A DNA stretch of 64,000 nt, from positions 1-64,000 of the forward strand of contig JAMFRO010000016.1 in NCBI GenBank assembly GCA_026224825.1, read 5' to 3'. Origin of the DNA: a bacterium. Lineage in GTDB: Bacteria; Pseudomonadota; Alphaproteobacteria; Acetobacterales; Acetobacteraceae. Every line of letters starts with the position of its first letter. Position 1 is the stretch's first letter. Both the position numbers and the translations under genes were made by a program. Below are positions 1,332-50,501 of the stretch, in pieces. The notes under the pieces are model-generated. The model saw nothing but the letters and a program-made list of their open reading frames with translations, had not been told where the DNA came from and did not search any database.

Positions 1332-1578
1332 AAAAAGGCGAGGGGCTTCGCCCCCCTCGACCCCCACTGGGCCTGAGGCCCAGACCCCATTAGCTTTTAA
1401 AAGGATATGAGAGAGGGGCTATGCGCCACCACGGACTGTGAACAATGTTCACAGTCCGTGGTGGCGCATAGCCCCTCTCTCATATCCTTAAAGTCTAGGG
1501 GTCTGGGGCCGTCACGCCGAAGGCGTGCTTCGCACGACGGCCCCAGCGGGGTCCAGGAGCGGAGCCCCTGGCCTTTTT
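1332..1578. repeat. Composite gene-end palindromic element, copy 2
   Basis: Complete copy between the htpG stop and the mreB upstream region. Order: AAAAAGGC, a GAGGGGCTTCGCCCC hairpin, a CTGGGCCTGAGGCCCAG hairpin, the long central palindrome (1401-1489), then GGGGTCTGGGGCCGTCACG with CGCCGAAGGCG and CGTGCTTCGCACG hairpins, ending AGCCCCTGGCC plus a T run. It probably terminates htpG transcription (minus strand) and insulates mreB. The rest of the htpG-mreB gap (1186-1331) shows no other gene. Confidence 0.85.
1401..1489. repeat. Perfect 89-bp palindrome, core of element copy 2
   Basis: Two perfectly complementary 44-nt arms (1401-1444 and 1446-1489) separated by a single base at 1445; the centre reads GTGAACAATGTTCAC. 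The core sequence differs from those of the other element copies although the surrounding modules are shared. It could extrude as a cruciform or form a very stable RNA hairpin. Confidence 0.95.
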
Positions 1579-1585
1579 CCTTAGC

Positions 1586-3373
1586 CTACCCCGAAATCGC
1601 GTTGGCTATGTGGCGTACGAACGCGGCGGGGTCTTCGGGGAGGTCGCCTTCTTGCAGGCGGGCTAGGTCCAGCAGGAGGAGGGCTGATTCTGTCAGGTTT
1701 TCTTTGGTGGTTAGGGATTGGACCAGTTTGTGGGTGGGGTTGATCTCCAGTTTGGGGGCGGGGCCGAAGATGGGGCGGCCGGCGCGGCGGAGGAGGCGTT
1801 GCATGGCGAGGTCGGGTCCGCCTTCGGCGGCGGCCAGCATGGCGGGGCTGTCTTTGAGGCGGGAGGAGACGGCAACGCCGGAGACTTTATCGCCCAGGGC
1901 AGCGGCCAGGTTGGTGCAGAGGGTGGCGATGTCTTCGGGGACTTCGCCGGCTTCGAACAGTTTGCCGGCTTGGCTGACGCTGGTGAGTTTCTTCTCGTGG
2001 AAGGTTCTGAGGCGGTCGGGCCAGAAGGCGTCGATGGGGTCGCCCAGGAGCAGCACCTCGAAGCCTTTCTCGGCGAAGCCTTCGAGCTGGGGTGAGGTTT
2101 TGAGGTGGGCGGCGTCGCCGGCGAGGTAGTAGATGGCCTCCTGGCCTTCGGGCATGCGGGCGATGTATTCGTCCAGCGTGGTGGCCTCTTCCTTGGTGGA
2201 GGCGAAGCGCAGCAGGCCGGCGAGCTCGGCGGCGTGGCCGGTGTCTTCGTAGATGCCTTCCTTCAGCGTGGTGCCGAAGTTTTCCAGGAATTTTTTGAAG
2301 TCTTCCGGGTCTTTGGCTTTGGCTTTTAGCTCGGAGAGCACGCGGTTGAGCAGCGCCTTGCGGATTTTATCCAGCACGGGGGTGGCCTGGAGCAGCTCGC
2401 GGCTCACGTTCAGGGGCAGGTCTTCGGTATCGACCACGCCGCTGACGAAGGAGAGCCAGTCGGGCAGGAGTTTGGCGTCGTCGGTGATGAACATGCGTTT
2501 GACGTGGAGACGGACTTTGGAGTCGCGGCGTTCCTCGACGGGGAAGAAGGGTTTGGAGCCGGGGATGAAGAGCAAAGCCGAGAATTCCAGCGTGCCTTCG
2601 GCGCGCCAGTGGATGGTGGCCCAGGGGTCGTCGAAATGATGCCCGGCGTGGCGGTAGAAATCGGCGTATTCCTCGGGCGTGACCTCGGATTTGGCGCGGC
2701 GCCAGAGGGCTTTGCCTTCGGTGACCTGGCCGAAATTGCCGTCTTCCTCCAGCTCGATGGGGAGGGCGACGTTGTCGGCCCATTTTTTAATGATGTCTTT
2801 TATCCGGAACGGCTCCAGGAACTCCTCGGCATCGGTTTTTACGTGCAGCACCACGGTGCTGCCGGCATCTAGCCGCTCGGCGGGTTTAAGCGTGTAGGTG
2901 CCTTTGCCGTCGGAGGCCCATTCCCAGGCTTCTTCTGCCCCGGCCTTGCGGGAGGTCACCTCGACATGGTCCGCCACCATGAAGGCGGAGTAGAAGCCGA
3001 CGCCGAACTGGCCGATGAGGCTGGGTTTGTCCACGGCCTTGTTTTCGGCGAGCTGGGTGGCGGCGAAGGCGGCGGTGCCGGAGCGGGCGATGGTGCCGAG
3101 ATTTTCCGCCAGCTCCTCCTTGCCCATGCCGATGCCGTTATCGGCGATGGTGATGGTGCGGGCACCCTTGTCCAGCGAGATTTTTACGGCCGCGTTTTCG
3201 GGCAGGGCCAAGGCTTCGTCGGAGAGGGAGAGGAAGCGGCGCTTGTCCGTGGCGTCGGCGGCATTGGCCACCAGCTCGCGCAGGAAAATCTCGCGGTCCG
3301 AATAGAGCGAATGCACCACCAGATCGAGCAGGCGCCCTACTTCAGTGTCGAAACTTCTTGTTTCTTCCGTCAT
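1586..3373 (-). CDS. htpG: Molecular chaperone HtpG (Hsp90)
   Basis: ATP-dependent cytosolic Hsp90-family chaperone. The 595-aa product shows the GHKL ATPase motifs: ELVANAADA near residue 35, DNGIGM near 80, and [15 protein letters not shown] near 120. In the middle domain it has [16 protein letters not shown], the Hsp90 hallmark including the catalytic-loop arginine. The ATG at 3373 is preferred over an upstream TTG because TTGAGGAATGAC places AGGA at the right distance. The stop is followed almost directly by the composite palindromic element. Confidence 0.97.
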
Positions 3374-3449
3374 GTCATTCCTCAATTATTTAACGCGGCC
3401 CTAAGGGTAAAACCCTGTTGGCATCTCCTATATAGCGCTGTTATTCAGG

Positions 3450-3471
3450 TGCAAATTTTCTGCAAATTTTC
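3450..3471. promoter_or_regulatory. 11-bp tandem direct repeat between htpG and the downstream acidic gene
   Basis: TGCAAATTTTC occurs twice in immediate tandem in the 112-bp space between the divergent htpG and the small acidic gene at 3486. An AT-rich tandem repeat in GC-rich DNA at a divergent promoter could be a regulator site or promoter core. Reading toward htpG, TTTGCA and CTATAT lie about 14 bp apart and loosely resemble an alphaproteobacterial heat-shock promoter. This is weak evidence. Confidence 0.35.
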
Positions 3472-49375: not shown

Positions 49376-49411
49376 GGTGAATTTTCCTCTTGGATCGTTT
49401 TTGTAATTTAT

Positions 49412-50152
49412 TCAGCCCGGCACGCGCGACTGGTACTGCACCACGCCGACATGGATATCCTCCGGCAGATCGACCAATGTGCGGAACACAGCCAGCGTCG
49501 ACTGGTACTGGGTGATGCCGCGCTCACGCAGGTTCAGCCCGCGCCGCAACGCCTCCGTACCAAAGCGCATCGCCGCTTCAGGCTCCATCTCCAGCGACAT
49601 GCCAGGCCCCATCATCTGCCCGGCCCGCACCACGCTCACGCGAATGCCCTTGTCGTTCAGCTCCAGCGCCAGATGCTTCGAGAAGTTTTCCACCCCGGCC
49701 TTGGACGCCTGGTACACACCCAAATGCGGAAACGGCAGATCCACGGATTCAGAGCTGATATTGATGATGATCCCGCCACGGTTGAGCACCGGTATGGCCG
49801 AGCGCGCGCACAGAATCGGCCCGGCCAGATTGGCCAGCACCGCCGACAGGATCTGGTCATCCGTCGCTTCCTCGATCAGGAAGGGATGAAAAATCGCGGC
49901 ATTATTGATCAGTACATCGATCTTCGGATGGGTCTTGGCAATGGTCTCAAACGCCGCCCGCACCGAGTCAGGCTTGCCGACATCGCAGGCCACAGCCAGC
50001 GCCCGCTCGCCAATGGCATCGGCAACTTCCTTCACCTTGTCGAACTTGCGCCCAAGCAGCACGACATGATCGCCGCCCTCAGCAAAGAACTGCGCCAGCG
50101 CCCGCCCCAACCCGCCATTGGCGCCCGTAATCGCTATAACCTTGCCGGCCAT
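49412..50152 (-). CDS. SDR-family oxidoreductase
   Basis: A 246-aa short-chain dehydrogenase: KVIAITGANGGLGRALAQFF, NNAAIFHPFL in place of NNAG, INISSES with the catalytic Ser, and YQASKAGVENFSKHLALEL with Tyr and Lys. The start is ATG 50152 (MAGKV), preceded by TTGGGGATGACG; ATG 50158 is also in frame. It is the first gene of the SDR-ALDH-TetR series. The upstream side is element copy 9, then the divergent IclR regulator. Confidence 0.9.
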   Translation of the reverse strand: MAGKVIAITGANGGLGRALAQFFAEGGDHVVLLGRKFDKVKEVADAIGERALAVACDVGKPDSVRAAFETIAKTHPKIDVLINNAAIFHPFLIEEATDDQILSAVLANLAGPILCARSAIPVLNRGGIIINISSESVDLPFPHLGVYQASKAGVENFSKHLALELNDKGIRVSVVRAGQMMGPGMSLEMEPEAAMRFGTEALRRGLNLRERGITQYQSTLAVFRTLVDLPEDIHVGVVQYQSRVPG

Positions 50153-50222
50153 CGTCATCCCCAAAAAATTTTTGCGCCGCACAGATGACATCGACAACCC
50201 CACGGCGGCAATGCCCCGGCCA

Positions 50223-50501
50223 TCGCGGCGGCGATACCTAAAAAGGCTGGGGCTCCGCCCCTGACCCCGCTGGGGCCGTCGTGCGCAGCACGCCTCCGGC
50301 GTGACGGCCCCAGACCCCCATTAGCTTTAAGGGTTTGAAAGGGGCCTGCCTCCGTCGCGTGTGGCGACTGGGTGGCAGGCCCCTTTCAAACCCTTAAGTT
50401 ACGGGATCCAAGGGCCCTTCGGCCCTTGGCGGGTCGTCACGCCGGAGGCGTGCTTCGCACGACGGCAGAGCCCTGGCCTTTTTAGATACCGTCGCCGCGA
50501 G
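50223..50501. repeat. Mirrored flanks of composite element copy 9
   Basis: Left flank 50223-50239 and right flank 50484-50501 are inverted near-copies (TCGCGGCG, then CG, then a TA-CT end), differing by three transitions. Both read as a possible gene end whose TAA overlaps the element's A run. No intact gene ends here now. These could be leftovers of a lost gene's 3' end. Confidence 0.6.
50240..50483. repeat. Composite gene-end palindromic element, copy 9
   Basis: Complete copy, module order as in copies 4 and 8. The central hairpin has perfect 22-nt arms at 50329-50350 and 50374-50395 (AAGGGTTTGAAAGGGGCC...) around a 23-nt loop. The partial copy at window position 1-127 has the same core. 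It is the only copy between two divergent gene starts (SDR and IclR), which is atypical for a terminator. No other gene is seen in the 434-bp gap. Confidence 0.87.

What the first reader, a model, noticed from the sequence alone, without database searches (positions are those of the whole stretch)
1332..50483. Modular gene-end palindromes: conserved outer modules, exchangeable core hairpins
Eight copies (1-127, 1332-1578, 15334-15551, 23055-23303, 29282-29468, 38877-39066, 45426-45694, 50240-50483) plus a minimal copy at 26161-26185 share outer blocks: an AAAAAGG start or TTTTT end, a GGGGCTCCGCCCC-like stem, a GGCCC/GGGCC stem and a GAGCCCTGGCC end. Inside sits a perfect or near-perfect hairpin. 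Its core is one of at least five unrelated sequences (copies 3, 4 and 7 share one; 1 and 9 share one; 2, 6 and 8 each have their own). Most sit 0-15 nt after a stop codon. This is a modular, exchangeable architecture, not a single repeat family. GC-rich gene-end repeats are familiar in Acetobacteraceae; I am not aware of the core exchange having been described.
Basis: seen in the sequence. Interest (0 to 1): 0.8.

Follow-up and report, generated by a model that had tools for sequence, protein, structure and literature searches.

The report
Gene-end palindromes with self-copying arms
In two related Acidocella bacteria, large layered mirror-image DNA repeats at the ends of genes keep their two halves matching while the sequence itself changes, flips and is overwritten from place to place, apparently by copying one half onto the other, which sometimes copies the end of a neighbouring gene as well.

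Summary
In detail: the palindromes are there, and their end motif has 97+90 exact hits in this Acidocella draft genome (reversed-pattern control 0). They favour gene 3' ends: 43 of 76 lie between convergent genes, 3 between divergent ones. At 14 orthologous loci with a readable core in the closest relative, G310, 9 keep the core class, 4 are replaced, 1 is ambiguous (five judged by eye). But the cores are not five unrelated sequences: they chain into two graded families in which both arms change together (86 paired, 6 broken-pair differences on a spanning tree). Outer stems and side hairpins turn over too. Among nine elements chosen for matching linkers and exact arms, the apex points one way in five and the other way in four. 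At two loci the outermost stem carries an inverted copy of a gene's coding end. Best reading: bidirectional terminator-like repeats, spread by copying between loci and rewritten by template switching between arms. Mechanism and termination are inferred. No PF01797 (REP-type) transposase was found in either genome. Both genomes are drafts.

The parts
1..127 (.). copy 1, right half only (cut by the contig start); right core arm 19-42 (TTAAGGGTTTGAAAGGGGCCTGCC type); next to the mreB 3' end
   Evidence: MreB Pfam match
1332..1578 (.). copy 2, complete; core arms 1401-1444 and 1446-1489 exactly complementary (beta family); next to the htpG 3' end; outer stem TAGGCTAAGG / CCTTAGCCTA
   Evidence: a different (alpha) core at the htpG end of G310's MAG, (L115; that contig ends inside the element, so only the htpG side is shared)
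15334..15551 (.). copy 3, complete; core arms 15421-15442 / 15470-15491 (AAGACTTAAAAAAGAGGCCTGC); between convergent genes (biotin carboxylase type and enoyl-CoA hydratase type)
   Evidence: no element at this site in G310
23055..23303 (.). copy 4, complete; core arms 23145-23167 / 23193-23215 (same core as copy 3)
26161..26185 (.). minimal copy: end stem only; reads as a deletion product between the two CCAGGGC direct repeats of a full copy (inference)
29282..29468 (.). copy 6, complete; core arms 29340-29361 / 29392-29413 (CGGGTCTTTGAAGAGGATGCCC)
38877..39066 (.). copy 7, complete; core arms 38935-38957 / 38983-39005 (same core as copy 3); outer stem TGCTGGAGT / ACTCCAGCA
45426..45694 (.). 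copy 8, complete; core arms 45517-45547 / 45575-45605 (beta). The non-coding left flank holds an inverted, imperfect copy of the 3' coding end of the gene at 45703-47016(-)
50240..50483 (.). copy 9, complete; core arms 50327-50350 / 50374-50397 (same right arm as copy 1); between divergent genes by my gene calls; outer stem GCGGCGGCGATACCT / AGATACCGTCGCCGC, imperfect

Best explanation
These are copies of a lineage-specific family of gene-end repeats built as nested palindromes around an AAAA-stem-TTTT bidirectional terminator-like stem. The family multiplied in two closely related Acidocella species. Copies overwrite one another (copying between loci), and within each copy the arms are rewritten by template switching: when replication meets the hairpin, one arm is copied from the other. 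That makes both arms change together, flips what lies between perfect arms, and sometimes copies the flanking gene end outward onto the other side, stop codon included. Slippage between short direct repeats deletes the middle and leaves minimal forms. Shown by sequence comparison: paired changes, opposite apex orientations between matching arms, different cores at orthologous loci, inverted gene-end copies. Inferred: template switching as the agent, copying between loci as the route of replacement, deletion slippage, and transcription termination as the function.
For: Paired change: 86 paired versus 6 broken-pair differences (and 26 indel columns) on a spanning tree of 78 cores; 19, 6 and 3 on edges of weight at most 2; 71 of 78 trimmed arm pairs perfect. 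Of 72 paired changes on edges of weight up to 6, 42 are transitions and 30 transversions, which cannot pass through G-U; 42 of 72 is below the 79% AU-GC switches reported for Bacillus cereus terminators (PMC5381666, section read; p = 7e-5; different species). Inversion: where both can be read, end type and side modules agree in orientation in 27 of 27 elements, but the alpha-core apex is 12:15 relative to the modules; in nine elements picked for matching linkers (one base differs in one of them) and exact 23-bp arms the apex is A.A in 5 and T.T in 4. Turnover at orthologous loci. Locus stems: 65 of 76 versus 13% of mismatched flank pairs; stop codons mirror-placed within 2 nt at 27 of 56 convergent loci versus 7.7 by permutation. 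Polarity: at C31:74926 the right gene ends in EGGF* in 15 of 15 relatives printed, and that DNA is repeated inverted (20 of 21 nt) at the left gene, supplying its TGA; at window copy 8 the ending ..KAA* is shared by the two closest relatives, G310 and G324, and an inverted copy lies in non-coding DNA. Literature: template switching gives arm homogenisation and spacer inversion (PMC8604942, passages; PMC8794818, abstract and one section).
Against: At the five retained orthologous cores compared pair by pair there are 6 paired and 5 broken-pair differences and 2 indel columns; 4 of the 5 broken ones lie in the apical part of one locus, C63:50669. The apical internal loop stays mismatched (30 of 36 alpha cores have A.A or T.T just above CCTGCC), so copying does not erase every mismatch and a structural constraint may act. 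My arm finder and trimming favour paired positions, and the spanning tree is not a phylogeny. The transversion baseline comes from another species. More distant relatives of the copy 8 gene end differently. At C5:57118 polarity could not be decided. Drafts: 19 of 27 unpaired ends lie within 210 nt of a contig end (contig lengths), and contig C8 equals its own reverse complement, which counts one element twice. No RNA data. Confidence lowered slightly from 0.60 on rechecking.
Confidence: 0.58

Rival explanations
1. Selection on RNA alone: ordinary terminator or mRNA-stabilising hairpins whose pairs are kept by stepwise compensatory substitution, with no DNA copying between arms.
For: Elements lie at gene 3' ends and avoid divergent gaps (G000: 43 convergent, 30 tandem, 3 divergent) and have A and T runs at their ends (the search motif requires the A run); fast compensatory switching is documented in terminators (PMC5381666, abstract and section); the apical mismatch is conserved; broken pairs are about as many as paired changes at five retained orthologous cores.
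Against: Perfect arms up to 45 bp, a high share of transversion switches, opposite apex orientations between identical arms, and inverted copies of coding ends are not predicted.
Confidence: 0.21
2. Cassette insertion: conserved outer modules into which unrelated mobile hairpins are inserted and exchanged.
For: Different cores at some orthologous loci; other Acetobacteraceae genera carry similar ends with quite different cores; direct similarity between the alpha and beta arm types is weak.
Against: Cores within this genome are chained by graded paired changes; linkers stay the same while only the apex flips, so breakpoints lie inside the arms; outer modules turn over as well; no PF01797 transposase in either genome.
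Confidence: 0.12
3. Assembly artefact: short-read assemblers joined arms or halves of different copies.
For: Many elements sit at contig ends; contig C8 (18,932 nt) is exactly its own reverse complement.
Against: Chimeric joins inside a core should break pairing, yet 71 of 78 trimmed arm pairs are perfect (with a finder that favours pairing); elements with matching flanks on both sides recur in a second genome at 17 loci (both flanks required by the search).
Confidence: 0.04

Closest known systems
REP / BIME / REPIN with TnpA-REP (RAYT); GTAG- and CGTC-tagged palindromes
   Same: Intergenic, mostly between convergent or co-directional genes, next to stop codons; REP termini can supply stop codons (PMC3733652, passages).
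   Different: Units here are mostly 189-269 nt with nested stems (54 of 64) rather than 20-40 nt (abstract in listing); no PF01797 match in either host genome.
Intrinsic bidirectional terminators and their compensatory evolution (Bacillus cereus study)
   Same: A run, GC stem, T run; 3' ends of convergent genes; paired substitutions (PMC5381666, abstract and one section).
   Different: A repeat family with nested palindromes, core replacement at orthologous loci, apex inversion and more transversion switches.
Template-switch (quasipalindrome) mutation
   Same: Predicts arm homogenisation and spacer inversion (PMC8604942 passages; PMC8794818 abstract and one section).
   Different: In the parts read it is a mutation process at single sites or RNA stems; here it would shape a whole repeat family in a genome.
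Stem-loop sequence families of bacterial genomes
   Same: Repeated intergenic stem-loops (PMC2267715 abstract) favouring convergent gaps (PMC1590033 passages).
   Different: No nested, inverting or orthologously replaced core in the parts read.

Membership tests
REP/RAYT elements | a Y1 (HUH) transposase, Pfam PF01797, in the genome | tested here: not met
   0 matches at E <= 0.001 in G000 and G310; 5 of 38 genus genomes match, none of them element-rich. G000 and G310 are 94-95% complete, so a missed gene is possible.
REP/RAYT elements | unit of 20-40 nt | tested here: not met
   54 of 64 paired elements are 189-269 nt; five are 29 nt.
REP/RAYT elements | GTAG or CGTC tag at one end of the stem | not tested
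   The shared ends read AAAAGGC..GCCTTTT; the double-hairpin module contains CGTC but was not compared formally.
Intrinsic bidirectional terminator | GC-rich stem followed by a T run on both strands at gene 3' ends | tested here: met
   but the A run is part of the search motif. A consensus scan of 38000-51000 lists three sites in copy 7, one in copy 9 and none in copy 8; its 15 hits are modestly above the shuffle mean of 10.1, sd 3.1.
Intrinsic bidirectional terminator | RNA 3' ends at the T runs | not testable with these tools
   No transcript data.
MITE / non-autonomous transposon | terminal inverted repeats with direct target-site duplication and an empty site | tested here: inconclusive
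   Inverted ends are present, but flanks are inverted rather than direct copies; few clean empty sites were seen.
Rfam families | score above a curated gathering threshold | tested here: not met
   0 matches in the window; a permissive search of 45300-50600 gave 13 hits, all below gathering scores (miRNA, plastid 3'UTR and snoRNA models).

The most novel reading that the evidence does not exclude
The palindromes are accretionary: by fold-back copying they take up the ends of neighbouring genes, stop codon included, as a new outer shell, and then carry that shell to other loci. The shared GGTTCTGAGGGCGGGGGTGTTCCACGG-like outer stem, with a TGA inside, would be such a captured gene end, and the inner shells older ones. 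Genes at these loci would then have their last codons and stops set by a repeat.
Probability: 0.18. Interest if true: 0.82.

Novelty: new variant of a known kind. Interest (0 to 1): 0.62.

Why it matters
Long hairpins that stay perfectly paired while their sequence changes are an old puzzle. This genome offers of the order of a hundred natural replicates with nested shells that act as internal controls (perfect arms flip their contents, imperfect shells do not) and a close relative for polarity. It makes template switching as a maker and keeper of gene-end hairpins directly testable, and suggests how repeat turnover can rewrite the 3' ends of neighbouring genes.

Tried and rejected
Autonomous mobiliser: the one 2.5-kb interval seen bounded by inverted ends (G000:C70:22171-24688) is an element with an insertion sequence in its side arm; its 300-aa protein matches the ISXO2-like IS1595 transposase domain, so it is not taken as a driver. 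RAYT: PF01797 not found in G000 or G310. Rfam: nothing above threshold. Minimal 29-nt forms as ancestors: possible, but they fit deletion between CCAGGGC repeats; at C22:38216 G310 has a full element, which does not tell direction. C33:4574 versus G310:C15 was first taken as a core replacement; I dropped it because the left-flank match may rest on the element itself and G000 has about 1.1 kb more on the right. C5:57118: polarity undecided. One common ancestor of alpha and beta cores is not claimed: z between the two groups runs from 0.3 to 3.3, and within groups from 0.7 (alpha) and 1.7 (beta) up to 5.5 and 7.0, so the groups hold together by chains, not by every pair. Rows dropped: one search used 76 of 77 G000 elements (short flank); one search placed 95 of 99 elements; one search kept 79 cores from 99 elements (element at least 140 nt, hairpin score at least 12); searches left out the C8 duplicate; one search lists 19 rows for 17 distinct loci, one only a 28-nt fragment; one search keeps only elements that fit its linker pattern, and its second pattern (CGGGTCTT cores) returned nothing.
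Full report
WHAT IS THERE. The window is G000:C52:1-64000, from a draft genome of 4.27 Mb in 108 contigs. HtpG from the window matches Acidocella genomes best (MAG Acidocella sp. NGEE_A_bin42 at 89%), so the host is taken as an Acidocella (Acetobacteraceae). The end motif AAAAGGCYNGGGCTCYGCC has 97 forward and 90 reverse exact hits in G000 against 0 for the reversed pattern. 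In the first 817,625 bases read I found 64 paired elements of 29 to 269 nt, 54 of them at least 189 nt. In 299 family genomes (drawn from a larger group) the motif occurs in 21; the highest counts after G000 are 43 (G145) and 4 (G080), both of one other genus. With a side-module pattern (one mismatch allowed), 13 of 38 genus genomes match: G000 has 85 hits, G310 has 59, and no other more than 3. The family therefore looks expanded in two close relatives.

ARCHITECTURE. From outside in: a locus flank stem; AAAA, a GC stem and TTTT; side modules (a short GGGCC/GGCCC hairpin or a double hairpin GTCGTGCG..GGCGTGAC, and GGGATCCAAGGGCC..GGCCCTTGG); linkers; and a core hairpin with an apical loop. 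Many loci share a GGTTCTGAGGGCGGGGGTGTTCCACGG-like stem; others are locus-specific.

POSITION. With a home-made gene caller, G000 elements lie in 43 convergent, 30 tandem and 3 divergent gaps (76 placed, the C8 duplicate counted twice); all adjacent gene pairs in the stretches of both genomes are 314, 1332 and 300 (convergent enrichment p = 6e-15). The nearest gene 3' end is -4 to 69 nt away, and 56 of 92 are within 15 nt. At convergent loci of both genomes the two stop codons often sit at mirror positions: the two distances differ by at most 2 nt at 27 of 56 loci versus 7.7 by permutation.

CORES ARE GRADED. Shuffle tests on 16 representative arms that I chose give z above 3 for 30 of 120 pairs and a median of 2.1. 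I read them as two groups held together by chains: alpha (types of window copies 1, 3, 4, 6, 7, 9) and beta (types of copies 2, 8). Not every pair inside a group is significant (alpha 0.7-5.5, beta 1.7-7.0; between groups 0.3-3.3), and copy 6 joins alpha only through intermediates. On a minimum spanning tree of 78 cores, 86 differences change both arms to another Watson-Crick pair, 6 break a pair and 26 are indel columns; on edges of weight at most 2 the counts are 19, 6 and 3; 71 of 78 trimmed arm pairs are perfect. Of 72 paired changes on edges of weight up to 6, 42 are transitions and 30 transversions. A study of B. cereus terminators reports 79% AU-GC switches (PMC5381666), so transitions are fewer here (p = 7e-5), as expected if both arms change in one event; the species differ, so this is suggestive. 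Against this, at five retained orthologous cores compared pair by pair there are 6 paired and 5 broken-pair differences and 2 indel columns, 4 of the broken ones in the apical part of one locus.

INVERSION. End type and side modules have the same mutual orientation in 27 of 27 elements where both can be read, while the apex of alpha cores is 12:15 relative to the modules and the loop of the CGGGTCTT cores 10:2. In nine elements picked for matching linkers (one base differs in one) and exact 23-bp arms the apex reads A.A in five and T.T in four. Inversion inside the perfect arms is the simplest reading. The same internal mismatch persists in 30 of 36 alpha cores, so homogenisation is not total.

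ORTHOLOGOUS LOCI. Seventeen distinct loci in the stretches held have element sequence in both genomes (19 rows; one is only a 28-nt fragment). Others were seen elsewhere: htpG, C5:57118, C39:77146 and C3:69732. At 14 loci a core can be read in both. Nine keep the class: C103:24177, C103:27898, C16:28251, C26:131660, C63:50669, C63:100812, C63:106851, C70:25618 and C5:57118. Four are replaced: C33:26051, C63:176654, C76:29838 and htpG/window copy 2 (one flank only). C26:123154 is ambiguous (arm identity 0.78). Arm identity was computed for nine of the 14; C103:27898, C26:131660, C63:100812, C5:57118 and htpG were judged by eye. Of the nine computed, five are at least 0.85, against 5.6% of non-orthologous pairs, so occupancy and often the core look ancestral. 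At C70:25618 the retained core differs by three paired changes and no broken pair. The core arm now at C76:29838 occurs in ten other G000 cores (one with a mismatched right arm, one starting two bases further in), which points to copying from another copy rather than slow drift. Whole-element orientation and outer stems also differ at several loci.

GENE-END COPIES. At C31:74926 the right gene ends in EGGF* in all 15 relatives printed, so that coding end is native; the same DNA, inverted, stands at the left gene (20 of 21 nt up to the A run) and supplies its TGA. Two relatives of the left gene have other C-termini. At window copy 8 the ending ..KAA* is shared by the two closest relatives (G310, G324; more distant ones differ), and an inverted copy lies in the non-coding left flank. 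At C5:57118 direction could not be told.

MECHANISM AND FUNCTION. Paired change, apex inversion and inverted copying are together what template switching between inverted-repeat arms predicts (PMC8604942 passages; PMC8794818). Replacement between loci needs copying among copies as well. The A-stem-T ends and gene-end position suggest bidirectional intrinsic terminators (inferred; the consensus scan of part of the window is only weakly above shuffles). Minimal forms fit deletions between CCAGGGC repeats (inferred).

KNOWN KINDS. REP/RAYT membership fails on the transposase and on unit size; no Rfam family reaches threshold. Nine searches of one open-access library (listings, with seven papers opened in part) showed no description of this family or of core replacement in Acetobacteraceae; that is a limited search.

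CAVEATS. Draft assemblies; 19 of 27 unpaired ends lie within 210 nt of a contig end, and contig C8 is its own reverse complement. Gene calls are my own. The spanning tree is not a phylogeny, and arm finding favours paired positions.

Noticed in passing
G000:C8 (L296), elements at 5835 and 12875 of 18,932 nt: The whole contig equals its own reverse complement, most likely an assembly fold-back at or around a palindrome.
   Followed up: yes
G000:C3 near 91,300 and G310:C13 near 18,400 (sequences): CGTC-type REP-like hairpins (CCGTCATGCCCGCGAAGGCGGGCAT) occur in Acidocella, although PMC3733652 (passage) says CGTC repeats are missing from Acetobacteraceae.
   Followed up: no
L090 (G000:C70:22171-24688): An insertion sequence whose 300-aa protein matches the ISXO2-like IS1595 transposase domain sits in the side arm of an element.
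   Followed up: partly
window 30986-31054: Three tandem 23-nt repeats (GGCGCATGCCACCTTAACCGGGC type).
   Followed up: no
L093 (G000:C89 near 63977): An element whose middle is long runs of G and C, possibly a sequencing or assembly error inside a palindrome.
   Followed up: no
L034, L045, L037, L041 and others (other Acetobacteraceae genera): Similar end modules with quite different inner hairpins occur across the family, in low copy except in G145.
   Followed up: partly
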